Source: Nitrospirota bacterium (lineage in GTDB: Bacteria; Nitrospirota; Thermodesulfovibrionia; Thermodesulfovibrionales; JdFR-88). Taken from it: a stretch of DNA of 8,010 nt. A program made the translations under genes and the position numbers. This document shows positions 2,581-8,010 of the stretch, piece by piece (the first letter of the stretch is position 1; each line of letters starts with the position of its first letter). The stretch spans positions 1 through 8,010 of the forward strand of contig JAKAGP010000064.1 of assembly GCA_021825785.1 (NCBI GenBank). Reading direction: 5' to 3'. Under the pieces are notes generated by a model. The model did no database searches and was not told the DNA's origin. It was given only the letters and a program-made list of their open reading frames with translations.

Positions 2581-3165
2581 ATGGCTTATAGAGAGAAACC
2601 GCAGACTGAAAAACCCGCTCCCAAAAAAAAGACAGGCCGGAGGATCTTAACCGCCGTCATTATCATTCTTTTGATGCCGGCCGGTTATTTTCTGCTCATT
2701 TTCGGCAATGGCAATTTTCACGCTGTGACGCCGGGGGAGGCGTACAGGTGCGCCCAGCCCGATTACAACCGGCTTGAATATTACATGAAGACTTACGGGA
2801 TAAGGAGCATTGTCAACCTGCGCGGCAGTAACCCCGGCGACAAGTGGTACCAGGATGAAATAAGGTTCAGCCTGGCCAACGGGATAAAACATTATGACGT
2901 TGCTCTTTCCGCCACCACGGACCCCACAGCCGCACAGATGAGTGAGCTCATGATGATAATACGGAGCGCGCCCAGGCCGGTACTGATACACTGCAAGTCC
3001 GGGGCCGACAGGTCCGGACTGTTTGCCGCGATGTGGAAGGAAGTTGCCGACGGAGAAAACAAATCAGAGGCAGATAAACAGCTTTCGATCCGTTACGGGC
3101 ATATGCCCGTTGGAGGCACAACCGTGATGGACCATGTCTTCCTTTCATGGCAACCGGCCAGATAA
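2581..3165 (+). CDS. Membrane-anchored dual-specificity/tyrosine phosphatase
   Basis: This 194-residue protein belongs to the Cys-based phosphatases, which remove phosphate through a thiol-phosphate intermediate. The P-loop is HCKSGADRSG (137-146), with nucleophile Cys138 and phosphate-binding Arg144. Asp106 lies 32 residues before the Cys, the spacing of the general acid in VHR-type enzymes. The opening FHAVTPGEAYRCAQP (46-60) and IVNLRG (77-82) are typical of bacterial DSP-like proteins. A Lys/Arg-rich N-terminus (14-21) precedes one transmembrane helix (about 22-41), so the catalytic domain should face the periplasm. AAAGG (about 2568-2572) lies 8 bases before the ATG. Its own promoter was not found, and co-transcription with the PCu(A)C gene is plausible (136-base gap). 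The substrate is unknown; protein phosphotyrosine, phosphoinositol or sugar phosphates are all possible. The P-loop lacks the CxAGxGR form of plant glucan phosphatases. Confidence 0.88.
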   Translation: MAYREKPQTEKPAPKKKTGRRILTAVIIILLMPAGYFLLIFGNGNFHAVTPGEAYRCAQPDYNRLEYYMKTYGIRSIVNLRGSNPGDKWYQDEIRFSLANGIKHYDVALSATTDPTAAQMSELMMIIRSAPRPVLIHCKSGADRSGLFAAMWKEVADGENKSEADKQLSIRYGHMPVGGTTVMDHVFLSWQPAR

Positions 3166-3195: not shown

Positions 3196-6100
3196 TCAAA
3201 AAAAGCCGACCTGGGGGCGCGTCTGTACGATGTAATACTGCCCTCCCGAAAAAGCCCCTTCGATGTCCTGGGGCGGGCCCATCGCCTCCTCCACCGCCAT
3301 GCCCAGCCTGGCTATTCCGGTTAACAGTCCGTCCCTGAATTCTTCATCCCATACCAGAGGGGTGTCAGAGTAATCCAGCACCCTTTTTACCGGAGAAGGC
3401 AGAACAAAGCTGTCATAAAGGCCTGCCCCGGCGTACCCCTCAAGGTCCTCCCCGTTGGAATCGGAGCGGAATATGAGGCCGCCGCCGAAAAGTCCCATGC
3501 TTTTGCTTGGAAAAGAAAGGGGCTTTGGCTTCCCTCCATCTTTCCTGCACACGAAATCCAGCGCCCTGCCCGGATAATTTGCGGCCAGGCTTTCTCCCAG
3601 TCCCAGCACGGCTTGGGCAAATACCTCCCCGCGGTCCCCGGAGACCGGGTTTGCGGTATGTATCACAAAACTGTAATCCGCTTTCACCACCTCCTGAATA
3701 AGGACCGACATCACAAGATCCTCATGATTAATGCCGTTCGTAATGCGGCTCAGGTACGCTCTTTCATTCCACTTAGAGGCCCATACGCTCTTTATGCATT
3801 GCCAGGCGTTTTCCCAATCAGAAGGCCAGGGAAGTCCGGCCCCGGTCATAATCTCCTTAAGCGCACTTTCCAGTTCGCCCGGCGGTGTAAGGCCAAGGAC
3901 AACTTCCTTCATGCGGGGAAGTGACCCAATGCCTTCCGCAGGCCCGGCCGCAAGCTCCTGGAGAAGCCTTTCATATTCCAGGGCAGACCGCCTGTTCGCC
4001 TCACCCGAGAGCACCTTGTCAAAAACCCCGAAAGGGAGGGCCGCCGAGCGAGGCATCTTTATCCATGAAGGGAGCCTGTCCCGAACGATCTTCAGGTTGT
4101 TGGACTTATACCCCACTTTTTGGGCGGTGAAGCCCTGCATGGCAATGGCATAGGACGTAAACCGGTGCCTTATCAGCGTGGCATGCGCCTGCCTTGCGCG
4201 CATGGGCGCTTCCTCTTCCCCCGCAGCCTCCCTGAAAGAAACAGCGTTCATTCCGTGCTCCTCAACCATAAGCAGCCGTCCCCTGAAGGATTTCAGTTCT
4301 TCCAGTTCCGGCCCGTCGAAACAAGTGGCAAAGAGCACTCCCGAGTTCCTGGCCCTTATCGCCAGATGTGAAAGGCTGTCCACGATCACGGGCGTCACTA
4401 TGGCCGCGACCCCGCGCGGTATCTCCTCATCTCCCGCCACCGAGTTTGCCGCAACGACCACCGGCCGCAAAAAGTCTTTGCCCTGTATCTCCTTAAGGGC
4501 ATTCACAACAATGACCTCTCCCACGCCTTTGCCCCCGCTTACGACCAGCCAGTCGCCCAGCCCCGCGCTTTTCCTCAACACCGGACCAAGCGCGCTTAAA
4601 AGCGCGGACAGCGCAAATACCGGGCGGCCGCGAAGGACCTCTTCCGTGAACAGATCGACCGTCCACGGCGAGGCATGGAACTCCCTGCCAAGATATGCGG
4701 CCCTGGGCTGAAGCATATCATGGAAATGCCTTGAGGCGGAGCCTATGGCCCTAAGCATACGCTCAACCGCAGCCTCCGCGCGCAAAGACCATTCCATGCC
4801 AGCATCACCCGCATTTTCAAGAAGCCGCCAGAACTTAAGCGATAAAGAGAATTCCTCGCTGGCATGCGAGAGGGAGACATTCTCAAGAGCAAACCCCGTT
4901 GCGCGGACGATCTGTAATTGGGTGAGATGCCCCAGGCTTCGTTCCACGACCTGACGGACGAAACCCTCCAGCGCCATATCCAGGAAGAGGAGGTCCCGGA
5001 CCCTGTGGGCTGGCCCTGAGGCAAAAAGCTCTTTTGAAAGCCGTCTGCGGGCTTCGAGCGCCTTTTCAAGCAAGGCCTCATTATCCTGCGTGCTCTGTTT
5101 TTCCAGGAGGAAATCCAGCAGGGACGACATGACGGCATCCAGAAGATGTTTCGCGTTTAGTACGGCAGTCCCCAGGTCGGCGCCCGAGTGCACTTCCTTA
5201 AGGATGTGAAGGAAGTGCTCAAAATCATTTATAAGGGGGTCCTTCAGATGCGGAATGAAGTCCGGGTCCGTCGTTATTGGCCTTTCATAGCTTCTGATGC
5301 GCTCCCGCGTTATGCCGCCCTGTTCGAGTTTACGGTAAAAACGGTCCAGGTCTCCGCCGGAGCGCAAAAATTCCAGGTAGGCTTCACATATCACAACATC
5401 ATCGGGCGTTGTGTTATTGTGCAGTTTCTGGTGCCACTCTTCCATGAAGTGGCCCGCCATCTCTTTTATGTGGTGCCGGTGCATGATGTTCAGCACCTCG
5501 TCCCGGACGCGCTGCGCGTTGCTGCCCCTGCCCAGGGTAGACATTGCAAGCCTTATTACCTCGCGCTCCGCAGGCCGGGCCCCGGAGAACCTGTCCGCGA
5601 GCTTCATGGTCAGCCGGTCCATGGAGTGCCCAAGCTCACGGGGCTTCGTATTATAATTTCTCTGCCAATCGAGCTGCCGCAGGGCGGAAAAACGAAGCCA
5701 GACGTAGATCAGCCACAGGCATTCGAGGTCGTCCCTTCCGATACGGTCAAGCAATTCATAACACAGGTCAAACCGGTGCATCAGGGTCCAGGACTGCTTT
5801 CCAGTCTCTTTTTCTATTATCTCGCGCGCGATGGAGTCACATGAGGCAAGCGGACCAGGAGGGGCAGGCGAAACTTCCGCGGCGGATATCCCGATACGGT
5901 AATTGCGCCCACGGTTGTTGTCCCAGCGTCCCTCATCGGGAAAGAAAAGCACAAAGTTCAGCCACTTGGCGCCGGGTGTTTTTTCAAACCTGATGATTAC
6001 CCCCCCATTTTTTCCCTCAAGCGGCGTCTGCACCGCGGAGGAACCAAAAATCCGGCTGCCCTCGGGCCAAAGATCCTGCGGGGGTATGCGCCATGGTTCC

Positions 6101-6246
6101 TGGGGGGAATCACTTATCCCCCAATGGAGGACACACTTCTTCGCAGTGTCCCCGCTTAAAGTTATCTCGGTCCTGCCAGAAAGCTCCTGCACCCGGACCG
6201 CTATGAGCACGCCTGAACCGGTCTGTATTTTTTCTTCTCTGTTCAT
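3196..6246 (-). CDS. gwd: Alpha-glucan, water dikinase (GWD) homologue
   Basis: The 1016-residue protein matches plant GWD/R1, which transfers the beta-phosphate of ATP to glucosyl residues of starch and the gamma-phosphate to water. Residues about 10-122 resemble one CBM45 starch-binding module: LHWG (40-43), Trp52, FGSSAVQTP (67-75) and WDNNRGRNYRI (108-118). The helical middle (about 135-540) carries the GWD signature EWHQKLHNNTTPDDVVI (270-286) and RSYERPITTDPDF (318-330). The phosphohistidine domain holds His627 in DSLSHLAIRARN (623-634), followed by FATCFDG. The C-terminal PPDK-like ATP-binding domain (about 705-1016) has NPVSGDRGE (866-874), GLGESLAANYPGRAL (882-896), RSDSNGEDLEG (927-937) and YIVQTRPQ (1005-1012). 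Plant GWD1 is about 1400 residues with two CBM45 modules, so this form is shorter at the N-terminus but catalytically complete. There is no signal peptide, so it is cytosolic. TAAGG lies 6 bases before the ATG; the gene ends in TGA. The water-dikinase family is far likelier than PEP synthase or PPDK. Confidence 0.93.
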   Translation of the reverse strand: MNREEKIQTGSGVLIAVRVQELSGRTEITLSGDTAKKCVLHWGISDSPQEPWRIPPQDLWPEGSRIFGSSAVQTPLEGKNGGVIIRFEKTPGAKWLNFVLFFPDEGRWDNNRGRNYRIGISAAEVSPAPPGPLASCDSIAREIIEKETGKQSWTLMHRFDLCYELLDRIGRDDLECLWLIYVWLRFSALRQLDWQRNYNTKPRELGHSMDRLTMKLADRFSGARPAEREVIRLAMSTLGRGSNAQRVRDEVLNIMHRHHIKEMAGHFMEEWHQKLHNNTTPDDVVICEAYLEFLRSGGDLDRFYRKLEQGGITRERIRSYERPITTDPDFIPHLKDPLINDFEHFLHILKEVHSGADLGTAVLNAKHLLDAVMSSLLDFLLEKQSTQDNEALLEKALEARRRLSKELFASGPAHRVRDLLFLDMALEGFVRQVVERSLGHLTQLQIVRATGFALENVSLSHASEEFSLSLKFWRLLENAGDAGMEWSLRAEAAVERMLRAIGSASRHFHDMLQPRAAYLGREFHASPWTVDLFTEEVLRGRPVFALSALLSALGPVLRKSAGLGDWLVVSGGKGVGEVIVVNALKEIQGKDFLRPVVVAANSVAGDEEIPRGVAAIVTPVIVDSLSHLAIRARNSGVLFATCFDGPELEELKSFRGRLLMVEEHGMNAVSFREAAGEEEAPMRARQAHATLIRHRFTSYAIAMQGFTAQKVGYKSNNLKIVRDRLPSWIKMPRSAALPFGVFDKVLSGEANRRSALEYERLLQELAAGPAEGIGSLPRMKEVVLGLTPPGELESALKEIMTGAGLPWPSDWENAWQCIKSVWASKWNERAYLSRITNGINHEDLVMSVLIQEVVKADYSFVIHTANPVSGDRGEVFAQAVLGLGESLAANYPGRALDFVCRKDGGKPKPLSFPSKSMGLFGGGLIFRSDSNGEDLEGYAGAGLYDSFVLPSPVKRVLDYSDTPLVWDEEFRDGLLTGIARLGMAVEEAMGPPQDIEGAFSGGQYYIVQTRPQVGFF

Positions 6247-6405
6247 GGATGCCTTACCGTCAAATGACCTTTTTATTTTGTTTTTATTTTATGGATGTCT
6301 TATTTATAGTTTACTTGAAAAACCAAAAACCTCTGCGGTTTCCGACGCCCAAAGCAAATCAAAAGGAAGGTTGCGGACTTCTCTATGGGATGTATAATTT
6401 AAAGC
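6247..6405. promoter_or_regulatory. Divergent promoter region between dikinase and Slp genes
   Basis: The two genes start back to back across 159 AT-rich bases. For the minus-strand dikinase the best -10-like box is TATAAA (plus-strand TTTATA around 6303-6308), without a convincing -35. A weak hairpin, AAACC (6327-6331) with GGTTT (6337-6341), lies upstream of that box. The plus-strand promoter is listed separately. No clear operator palindrome was seen. Confidence 0.35.
6371..6398 (+). promoter_or_regulatory. Candidate promoter of the Slp-family gene
   Basis: A perfect TATAAT (6393-6398) is paired with TTGCGG (6371-6376) at 16-base spacing. The -10 box ends only 7 bases before the ATG at 6406. 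Transcription would therefore begin at or next to the start codon, which agrees with the lack of a Shine-Dalgarno sequence there. The position argues either for a leaderless message or for a real promoter further upstream. Confidence 0.4.
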
Positions 6406-7176: not shown

Positions 7177-8010
7177 ATGCACAAAAGATTGCCTTTGACG
7201 GGAGGACTAAGCAGGCGGAGCTTTCTTTCTTCCGGCCTTGTCCTTGCCGCATCATCCGTCCTGCACCTGCCTGAAACCGCTCTGGCGGAGACATTTTCAA
7301 ATGAAACATCTTCAAATGGCGGGGAAGACTTCACATATGACGGCAGCACCTACCCCTGTCCCATCCCCTGGCTGGATAAGAACGGAAGCCACAACCAGCC
7401 GGCCGGTCCCGGCAATGAGCCCTCTCATATATATCACTTCAAAGGCAGGGTGGCCCGGTGCAGTGATTTCGCCGGCATGGGCACTGACAACAAGGGAAAC
7501 CGCCTGGCCTTCGGAAGCCCTACCACTGACAACGGTGTCATGCAGGGCGAATATTTCACGGGAAGGGAGGTACATAAAGGGACTTTCGCCCATTTATGAG
7601 TGACCCTCTTCAAGGGGCAGTTGTCCCACGAAAACCAGGTGCATGACTTCCATCCCCCGGTAGGATTCTGCGGGCTTTACTGGGTGATTCCCATGCCCGA
7701 AGGCGGCCTAAAGTTAAGCGACGGCGGGAAAACGGCGGTCCTCGATCTTAAAGGCGTCAGCGTTATCGACCAACCCACATGGCCCAAATTCCAGGCCAGG
7801 GCAACACCGGCCAGAATGAGCATAAAGATAGTTTGGAAGGCCACCGGTGAGAAGGTCAGCTACAACGACCCGCAAAAACAGTTCCGGGTGTACGGGCACA
7901 AAGCCGTGGCGCAGATGGAGGCGGCGGTGGAGGTGCCCCAGACCGGCTTTTCGTGGAAGTCCGATCCGCTGGAGACATCCAGGGCAAAATTCGCCATCAT
8001 AGGGGAAGAG
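7177..8010 (+). CDS. Tat-exported protein of unknown function, broken by in-frame TGA, runs off the window
   Basis: The frame opens at ATG 7177, 7 bases after AGGGGGG (7163-7169). It begins with a twin-arginine signal, SRRSFLSSG (12-20), a hydrophobic stretch and a likely cleavage site ALA/E (35-38), so the folded product should go to the periplasm. A TGA at 7597-7599 (codon 141) stops it, yet the same frame stays open for the remaining 137 codons to the window end with normal codon use. The joined sequence reads as one protein of at least 278 codons. Visible residues include Cys61, Cys95, His86, His88, His139, then after the TGA His151, His156, His159 and Cys165 in GFCGLYW, which could bind metal. 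I recognise no family. The TGA may be a nonsense mutation (TGG to TGA is one change), a base-call error or selenocysteine. No ribosome binding site supports a separate restart at GTG 7600. Confidence 0.7.
7614..7627 (+). other. Weak stem-loop after the in-frame TGA
   Basis: GGGGC (7614-7618) can pair with GTCCC (7623-7627) with one G-U pair, leaving an AGTT loop 19 bases downstream of the TGA at 7597-7599. This loosely fits what is known of bacterial SECIS elements (short upper stem, G early in the apical loop, loop within a few tens of bases of the UGA). Such a small hairpin is common by chance, and the protein has no Cys beside the UGA position, so this is only a candidate. Confidence 0.12.

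What the first reader, a model, noticed from the sequence alone, without database searches (positions are those of the whole stretch)
3196..6246. Plant-type alpha-glucan, water dikinase in a bacterial gene context
The protein carries the GWD signature EWHQKLHNNTTPDDVVI, the phosphohistidine motif DSLSHLAIRARN with His627 and the C-terminal RSDSNGEDLEG and YIVQTRPQ motifs, so all known catalytic parts are present. GWD is best known from plants and algae, where it phosphorylates starch to allow its breakdown. Its neighbours here (Slp and PCu(A)C lipoproteins, Shine-Dalgarno sites) are bacterial. This implies that phosphorylation of a storage glucan occurs in this bacterium, which to my knowledge is little described.
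Basis: partly seen in the sequence, partly recalled or inferred. Interest (0 to 1): 0.7.

Follow-up and report, generated by a model that had tools for sequence, protein, structure and literature searches.

The report
Bacterial glucan water dikinase gene
A bacterium of the phylum Nitrospirota carries an intact gene for the kind of enzyme that plants use to put phosphate on starch, and in some related bacteria this gene sits among glycogen genes and beside a second enzyme of the same plant pathway, so phosphate marking of stored sugar may not be confined to starch-making eukaryotes.

Summary
Window 3196-6246 (-) encodes a 1016-residue alpha-glucan, water dikinase (GWD): 41% identical to potato GWD, same domain order, catalytic His627, central and ATP-binding motifs present. 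It is not PEP synthase, PPDK or contamination: relatives occur in bacteria labelled as eight phyla. 'Plant-type' is misleading: in my tree bacterial GWDs lie apart from angiosperm GWDs, and 73 of 73 lack the first cysteine of the plant redox switch. The window's neighbours look incidental, but its genome has GlgC, glycogen synthase, GH13 and GH57 genes, and 37 of 79 GWD genes examined lie within 8 kb of GH13, GH57 or glycogen synthase genes. Beyond the finding: some relatives carry, usually next to GWD, a second dikinase that groups with plant phosphoglucan, water dikinase (PWD), with an endonuclease-IV-like TIM barrel in place of the starch-binding domain. That TIM barrel is in 33 of 395 phylum genomes, all 33 among the 40 with GWD. 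Bacterial GWD is mentioned in a 2018 figure legend; I did not find the GWD-PWD-TIM set in ten searches of an open-licence library. Enzyme activity is untested.

The parts
3196..6246 (-). alpha-glucan, water dikinase gene, 1016 aa, ATG start, TGA stop
5893..6237 (-). N-terminal Ig-like domain (PF23166), residues 4-118; one stretch
   Evidence: potato has two matched stretches
4564..5841 (-). helical central domain, residues 136-561, matching the solved potato GWD central domain
   Evidence: 9ha9, E 7.4e-87; helices in the model
5389..5439 (-). GWD signature EWHQKLHNNTTPDDVVI, residues 270-286
   Evidence: WHQKLHNN 99-100% conserved per position among 73 bacterial GWDs
4219..4551 (-). phosphohistidine domain (PF22973), residues 566-676
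4366..4368 (-). catalytic His627, aligned with the SHVSVRARN histidine of potato GWD (reported as His992)
   Evidence: His in 73 of 73 bacterial GWDs; role of His992 from PMC12892837, passages
4321..4335 (-). residues 638-642 (LFATC) at the plant redox motif CFATC; first Cys replaced by Leu638
   Evidence: CFATC and its disulfide from PMC6160744, passages
3208..3813 (-). C-terminal ATP-binding domain (PF01326), residues 812-1013, with RSDSNGEDLEG and YIVQTRPQ
   Evidence: fold match to the ATP domain 5hv6
6252..6256 (-). purine-rich TAAGG upstream of the start codon, possible Shine-Dalgarno
2581..3165 (+). convergent gene for a DSP/PTP-like phosphatase with a hydrophobic N-terminal segment; judged an incidental neighbour

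Best explanation
The gene encodes a working bacterial GWD. ATP is bound by the C-terminal domain, the beta-phosphate goes to His627, and the mobile phosphohistidine domain passes it to a glucosyl residue (most likely C6, as in plants) of the cell's own glycogen-like alpha-glucan, held by the N-terminal Ig-like and central helical domains; AMP and Pi are released. The phosphate opens or solubilises glucan chains for degradation. It lacks the thiol switch of the plant enzyme. Shown: family, domain order, catalytic residues, bacterial origin, gene linkage to alpha-glucan genes in relatives. Inferred from the plant enzyme or from context: activity, C6 position, substrate, which domain binds glucan, physiological role.
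For: Domain architecture and motifs. Tree: the window lies among 35 bacterial GWDs, which with 8 plant GWDs are split by a branch of SH-aLRT 100 from 25 bacterial second dikinases plus 8 plant PWDs. HMM scores: plant GWD on the bacterial GWD model median 1173 bits, on the bacterial PWD-type model 306. Catalytic His in 73 of 73. Context in relatives: within 8 kb of 79 GWD genes, GH13 in 26, PWD-type in 23, GH57 branching enzyme in 13, GT5 in 5; 37 of 79 have at least one GH13/GH57/GT5. The same-family relatives G120 and G319 have the GH13 gene directly downstream. Co-occurrence: canonical GlgP (over 300 bits) in 22 of 40 GWD+ against 0 of 20 GWD- genomes, GH13 ortholog in 25 of 40 against 1 of 20. 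Own genome: GlgC (429.7 bits, cut-off 424.9), GT5 synthase, three GH13 and two GH57 matches.
Against: No alpha-glucan gene was seen in the 9.7 kb and 7.1 kb beside the window's GWD (31 of 79 loci lack any of the glucan set, many of them cut by contig ends). Its genome (76% complete) shows no canonical GlgP, no PWD-type gene and no TIM-barrel partner, and a second GWD copy on contig C6 is reduced to its N-terminus. GWD gene GC is 0.569 against 0.513 and 0.506 in the flanks of the window, which could mean a transferred gene. GT5 is in all 60 genomes and does not discriminate. The 20 GWD- genomes come from few families, so the co-occurrence counts are not independent. No activity data.
Confidence: 0.8

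Rival explanations
1. A dikinase of the GWD family that phosphorylates something other than stored glycogen, for example short malto-oligosaccharides or another glucan.
For: No glucan gene next to the window copy; one N-terminal module where potato has two; potato GWD prefers ordered, crystalline maltodextrin over soluble glucan (PMC13011383, passages), which speaks against soluble glycogen as a good substrate.
Against: Central domain and motifs match the potato enzyme closely; linkage in relatives to branching, debranching-like and synthase genes.
Confidence: 0.12
2. A relic no longer used in this species.
For: Second GWD copy truncated in the same genome; partners not found in a 76% complete assembly.
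Against: Full-length frame, catalytic residues kept, about 71% identity to the genes of four other genome bins (L005, L006, L007, L058).
Confidence: 0.05
3. PEP synthase, PPDK or another PPDK_N phosphotransferase.
For: Best NCBIfam matches are PEP synthase models.
Against: Those scores are 77.3 bits or less against cut-offs of 598 or more; the phosphohistidine domain comes before the ATP domain; the genome's own PPDK (C29, cut by the locus end) scores 10.5 bits or less on the four GWD/PWD models.
Confidence: 0.01
4. Eukaryotic contamination, or a recent transfer from a plant or alga.
For: GWD was reported only from organisms known to accumulate starch (PMC6260743, passages); gene GC is higher than that of its flanks.
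Against: The 19.9 kb that I read of the 47.6 kb contig look bacterial; relatives in many bacterial assemblies including three long or complete records (L028, L039, L054); bacterial GWDs lie on one side of a branch from angiosperm GWD, support 87.
Confidence: 0.02

Closest known systems
Potato/angiosperm alpha-glucan, water dikinase GWD1 (EC 2.7.9.4)
   Same: Domain order, 41% identity, catalytic His, WHQKLHNN and C-terminal motifs.
   Different: One Ig-like N-terminal module instead of two and no DUF7067 match; first cysteine of CFATC absent; 1016 against 1464 residues.
Bacterial GWD genes shown in the GWD tree of PMC6260743 (2018)
   Same: Bacterial members of the GWD family, noted there as possible lateral transfers (figure legend read).
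   Different: The passages that I saw name no taxa, gene context or PWD-type partner of the bacterial genes; the figure itself is not held.
Phosphoglucan, water dikinase PWD (EC 2.7.9.5)
   Same: Same catalytic domains; the bacterial second dikinase of other genomes groups with it.
   Different: The window protein lies on the GWD side of the tree. The bacterial PWD-type proteins scanned (L008, L009) carry a TIM barrel where Arabidopsis PWD has CBM20.
PEP synthase / PPDK / rifampicin phosphotransferase
   Same: ATP-binding PPDK_N domain.
   Different: Domain order and remaining parts; scores far under family cut-offs.

Membership tests
GWD family (EC 2.7.9.4) | Order: N-terminal Ig-like, helical central, phosphohistidine, ATP-binding | tested here: met
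GWD family (EC 2.7.9.4) | Catalytic histidine equivalent to potato His992 | tested here: met
   His627; His in 73 of 73 bacterial GWDs; role of His992 from PMC12892837, passages
GWD family (EC 2.7.9.4) | Groups with plant GWD against PWD | tested here: met
   branch SH-aLRT 100; HMM cross-scores. Quick tree, only angiosperm eukaryotes sampled
GWD family (EC 2.7.9.4) | ATP- and glucan-dependent phosphate transfer to C6 | not testable with these tools
   needs purified protein
Plant-type redox-regulated GWD1 | CFATC cysteine pair beside the catalytic His | tested here: not met
   Leu638 at the first position; Cys there in 0 of 73 bacterial GWDs (L 62, V 5, F 5, P 1); second Cys in 73 of 73
Plant-type redox-regulated GWD1 | Two N-terminal Ig-like modules | tested here: not met
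   one stretch in the window protein; two in potato and in the longer bacterial form L054
PWD (EC 2.7.9.5), for the window protein | Placement with plant PWD | tested here: not met
PWD, for the bacterial second dikinase (not in the window) | Placement with plant PWD and its motifs | tested here: met
   (branch 100; 25 bacterial rows); plant PWD scores median 881 on its model against 245 on the bacterial GWD model; NKLHR.AGPEDL in the 7-row consensus and mostly LSHL.VRARQ as in the Arabidopsis sequence
PWD, for the bacterial second dikinase (not in the window) | N-terminal CBM20 as in the Arabidopsis enzyme | tested here: not met
   AP_endonuc_2 TIM barrel instead in the two scanned (L008, L009)
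PWD, for the bacterial second dikinase (not in the window) | Needs glucan pre-phosphorylated by GWD | not testable with these tools
   consistent: among 60 genomes, PWD-type in 12, all 12 with GWD
PEP synthase / PPDK | Score over curated family cut-off; ATP domain ahead of the phosphohistidine domain | tested here: not met
   77.3 bits against 883; reversed order

The most novel reading that the evidence does not exclude
Bacteria of several phyla run a complete phosphoglucan cycle of their own: GWD marks glycogen-like glucan (C6), a true PWD adds a second mark (C3), and an endonuclease-IV-like three-metal TIM barrel, encoded beside GWD or fused to PWD, removes the phosphate in place of the plant phosphatases SEX4/LSF2. 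The GWD/PWD pair of plants would then be one branch of a system shared with bacteria.
Probability: 0.35. Interest if true: 0.88.

Novelty: new variant of a known kind. Interest (0 to 1): 0.62.

Why it matters
In the passages I read, GWD is treated as an enzyme of starch-accumulating eukaryotes, proposed to have arisen with the primary plastid (PMC6260743), and the enzyme that phosphorylates glycogen is called unknown (PMC13011383). A broad bacterial GWD family, tied in many relatives to glycogen genes and in some paired with a PWD-type enzyme, makes two questions testable: where the plant pair came from, and whether a bacterial glycogen is deliberately phosphorylated. The smaller bacterial enzymes without the cysteine switch may also be easier to solve as full structures; a 2026 review says that GWD1 and PWD1 structures have yet to be determined (PMC12892837).

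Tried and rejected
Convergent phosphatase as functional partner (kinase-phosphatase pair): rejected. In 16 genomes searched, homologs occur in GWD- genomes G093 and G235, are absent from GWD+ G120 and G319, and lie on other contigs than GWD in G146, G387, G393 and G323. Its hydrophobic segment behind basic residues suggests a domain outside the cytoplasm (topology rule recalled). SEX4-like DSPc in general: over the cut-off in 4 of 40 GWD+ and 0 of 20 GWD-; at E 0.001 in 14 of 40 and 3 of 20; so no general partner. The four over the cut-off (G154, G164, G174, G198) are all PWD-positive; not followed up.

Direction of transfer between bacteria and plants: unresolved. Only angiosperm eukaryotes were in the tree, support for bacterial GWD and PWD as single sides is 87 and 71, and the program warned that long branches meet; the tree is a quick one without bootstrap.

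Whole-fold search of the window model: the ATP domain was found (5hv6); weak hits to plant isoamylase (E 5e-3, aligned part not shown); the potato GWD central domain is not among the 50 rows shown. The neighbour C2 of about 350 residues gave no Pfam or NCBIfam match and only weak PDB matches.

Rows dropped: genome G063 (22 bits, under cut-off, TGA inside). The tree used 35 of 69 full bacterial GWDs, 25 second dikinases over 800 aa, and 8 each of the 120 plant hits listed. The 79 genes include fragments and one gene in two pieces (L059). A first regex found the His motif in only 63 of 79; the alignment has His in 73 of 73 proteins over 780 aa. The locus scan and the genome draws are samples, not censuses; one search scored at most 6 first-look candidates per genome.
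Full report
What is there. The minus-strand ORF 3196-6246 codes for 1016 residues from ATG to TGA. Pfam gives Ig_N_CWD1 (4-118), GWD1_pHisD (566-676) and PPDK_N (two stretches, best 812-886), all over their curated cut-offs. The protein aligns with full-length potato GWD at 41% identity, 728 bits, and residues 136-561 match the potato GWD central domain in the PDB (9ha9, E 7.4e-87). In a model built from 26 sequences (mean pLDDT 85.1) His627 is the first residue of a helix.

It is a GWD and not a PEP synthase or PPDK. NCBIfam's best model is PEP synthase at 77.3 bits against a cut-off of 883, best through the ATP domain, and the phosphohistidine domain precedes the ATP domain. In a 76-row quick tree (931 columns) 35 bacterial GWDs including the window and 8 plant GWDs are separated from 25 bacterial second dikinases and 8 plant PWDs by a branch with SH-aLRT 100. 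Profile scores agree: plant GWD scores a median of 1173 bits on the bacterial GWD model and 306 on the bacterial PWD-type model; plant PWD scores 245 and 881. The genome's own PPDK (contig C29, end cut off) scores 10.5 or less on these models.

It is bacterial, and widespread. The window lies on a 47.6 kb contig of a 2.2 Mb, 76% complete assembly. Relatives of 69-73% identity occur in other assemblies, those with names being Nitrospirota. Of 395 genomes drawn from the phylum, 41 have a match to the phosphohistidine-domain family at E 0.001 and 40 are over the cut-off; all 40 proved to hold a GWD-type gene. Among 62 loci of named genomes the labels give Nitrospirota 31, Myxococcota 7, Thermodesulfobacteriota 6, Pseudomonadota 5, Verrucomicrobiota 4, Planctomycetota 3, Nitrospinota 2, Acidobacteriota 1, unknown 3; most are metagenome bins. 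The protein search found 1420 relatives among 7997 scored candidates and listed 120. The gene's GC (0.569) is above that of its flanks in the window (0.513, 0.506), which leaves room for an old transfer.

Differences from the plant enzyme. The potato regulatory disulfide is in the CFATC motif (PMC6160744, passages). In 73 bacterial GWDs over 780 aa the first position is never Cys (L 62, V 5, F 5, P 1) while the second is Cys in all 73; the catalytic His is kept in all 73. The window protein has one Ig-like module; potato GWD and the longer bacterial form L054 have two.

Context. The window's own neighbours are an M42 peptidase, PCuAC, a DSP/PTP-like phosphatase with a hydrophobic N-terminal segment, Slp and a possible Tat-signal protein; they give no functional hint, and the phosphatase does not travel with GWD. 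In relatives the picture is different. Around 79 distinct GWD genes, fragments included, counting genes within 8 kb, there is a GH13 protein in 26, a PWD-type dikinase in 23, a TIM-barrel protein in 16, an unassigned protein (C2) in 14, a GT4 in 13, a GH57 branching enzyme in 13, other GH57 in 8 and 5, and a GT5 glycogen synthase in 5; 37 of 79 have at least one GH13, GH57 or GT5 gene, and 31 have none of the glucan set, the window among them. In the same family, G120 and G319 have the GH13 gene directly downstream of the window's ortholog, and G387 of the same genus has a GWD end, TIM and GH13 in a row. Longer proteins that begin like C2 and end like the GH13 protein occur (L124, L126, L137; likeness to C2 seen by eye).

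Co-occurrence. In 40 GWD+ and 20 GWD- genomes, the latter from the same order, canonical glycogen phosphorylase (over 300 bits) is in 22 of 40 and 0 of 20, and the GH13 ortholog (over 200 bits) in 25 of 40, one of them in pieces, and 1 of 20, G263. GT5 is in all 60 and so says nothing. Fisher tests give about 1e-5 each, but genomes are related and these are not independent draws. The window's genome has GlgC over its cut-off, a GT5 synthase, GH13 and GH57 matches and the GH13 ortholog on contig C6. It shows no canonical GlgP, PWD or TIM.

The second dikinase is a bacterial PWD by sequence. It usually follows GWD directly, mostly carries P-H/L-LSHL-A/G-VRARQ at the phosphohistidine and NKLHR-x-AGPEDL in the centre, like Arabidopsis PWD, and scores with plant PWD as above. 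It was found in 12 of 40 GWD+ and 0 of 20 GWD- genomes, and in named loci labelled as six phyla. That all 12 have GWD fits the plant rule that PWD acts on glucan already phosphorylated by GWD (PMC12892837, passages). Where Arabidopsis PWD has CBM20, the two bacterial proteins scanned have an AP_endonuc_2 TIM barrel.

The TIM barrel is a strict companion of GWD in this sample. Alone or fused to PWD it is in 33 of 395 phylum genomes at E 1e-30, and all 33 are among the 40 GWD genomes. A hypergeometric calculation gives 1e-41, again without allowing for kinship; in families f2 and f4 GWD and TIM differ together between genomes (G241 against G004 and G104; G164 against G032 and G101). Seven GWD genomes, the window's among them, show no TIM. 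In L020 and L048 it is a separate gene between GWD and a PWD without it. Nine residues (H72, H106, E137, D170, H173, H199, D210, H212, E246 in L039) are invariant in 14 of 14 lone TIM proteins and, in their own numbering, in 7 of 7 fused ones. I recall the metal ligands of E. coli endonuclease IV as H69, H109, E145, D179, H182, H216, D229, H231, E261; the alignment to another solved endonuclease 4 (5zhz) pairs eight of the nine with identical residues, and the ninth lies beyond its end. This favours a phosphoesterase, and the phosphate-removing role is my proposal; fold comparison alone cannot tell it from sugar epimerases.

What is in print. I ran 10 paper searches (one search failed) and looked into eight papers, by passages only: PMC3578206, PMC8703398, PMC13011383, PMC9870897, PMC12892837, PMC6260743, PMC7147346, PMC6160744. 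The one statement on bacterial GWD that I saw is in PMC6260743: its Fig. [quoted passage not shown] PMC8703398 derives red algal GWD and PWD from the eukaryotic host. I saw nothing on bacterial PWD or the TIM partner; other listed papers were not opened and the library holds open-licence papers only, so this is weak evidence of absence. JGI's automatic names already call many of these proteins alpha-glucan,water dikinase.

Verdict. The finding is right in substance: an intact bacterial GWD. As a single gene it is a new member of a known, thinly described bacterial branch. The larger pattern (GWD with PWD and a probably three-metal TIM barrel among glycogen genes, in several phyla) is a variant that I did not find described, and it gives concrete tests. 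Activity and physiological role remain inferred.

Noticed in passing
L008:11029-14457 and similar genes (L009, L054, L126, L137); not in the window: Second dikinase, usually next to GWD, that groups with plant PWD and carries an N-terminal endonuclease-IV-like TIM barrel instead of CBM20.
   Followed up: yes
L039:11565-12371, L028:11047-11868 and others: Stand-alone TIM-barrel protein with nine invariant H/E/D residues; the family is in 33 of 395 phylum genomes, all of them with GWD.
   Followed up: partly
L154:7944-8516 (own genome, contig C6): Second GWD copy reduced to about 165 N-terminal residues, directly before the GH13 gene; truncation or assembly fault.
   Followed up: partly
L124:4716-7061, L126:12952-15318, L137:12853-15201: A protein of about 350 residues without Pfam or NCBIfam match (C2), often between PWD and GH13 and apparently fused to the GH13 protein in these loci; function unknown.
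   Followed up: partly
window 7177-8010 (+): A frame with a weak Tat-signal match (7177-7599) ends with TGA and the same frame goes on at once from 7600; one gene split by an in-frame TGA, or two genes.
   Followed up: no
window 3568 and 7716: The window differs from the held genome G000 at two bases; the GWD protein is unchanged (100% identity).
   Followed up: partly
L008:16888-17724: Basic, lysine-rich protein with a DUF4912 match; its cluster recurs near GWD in 5 of 79 loci.
   Followed up: no
L105, L107, L109, L112: A second GWD type, about 50% identical to the window protein, each with the GH13 gene beside it.
   Followed up: partly
genomes G154, G164, G174, G198: The only 4 of 60 genomes with a DSPc phosphatase over the Pfam cut-off are all among the 12 with a PWD-type gene; chance or a SEX4-like link.
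   Followed up: no
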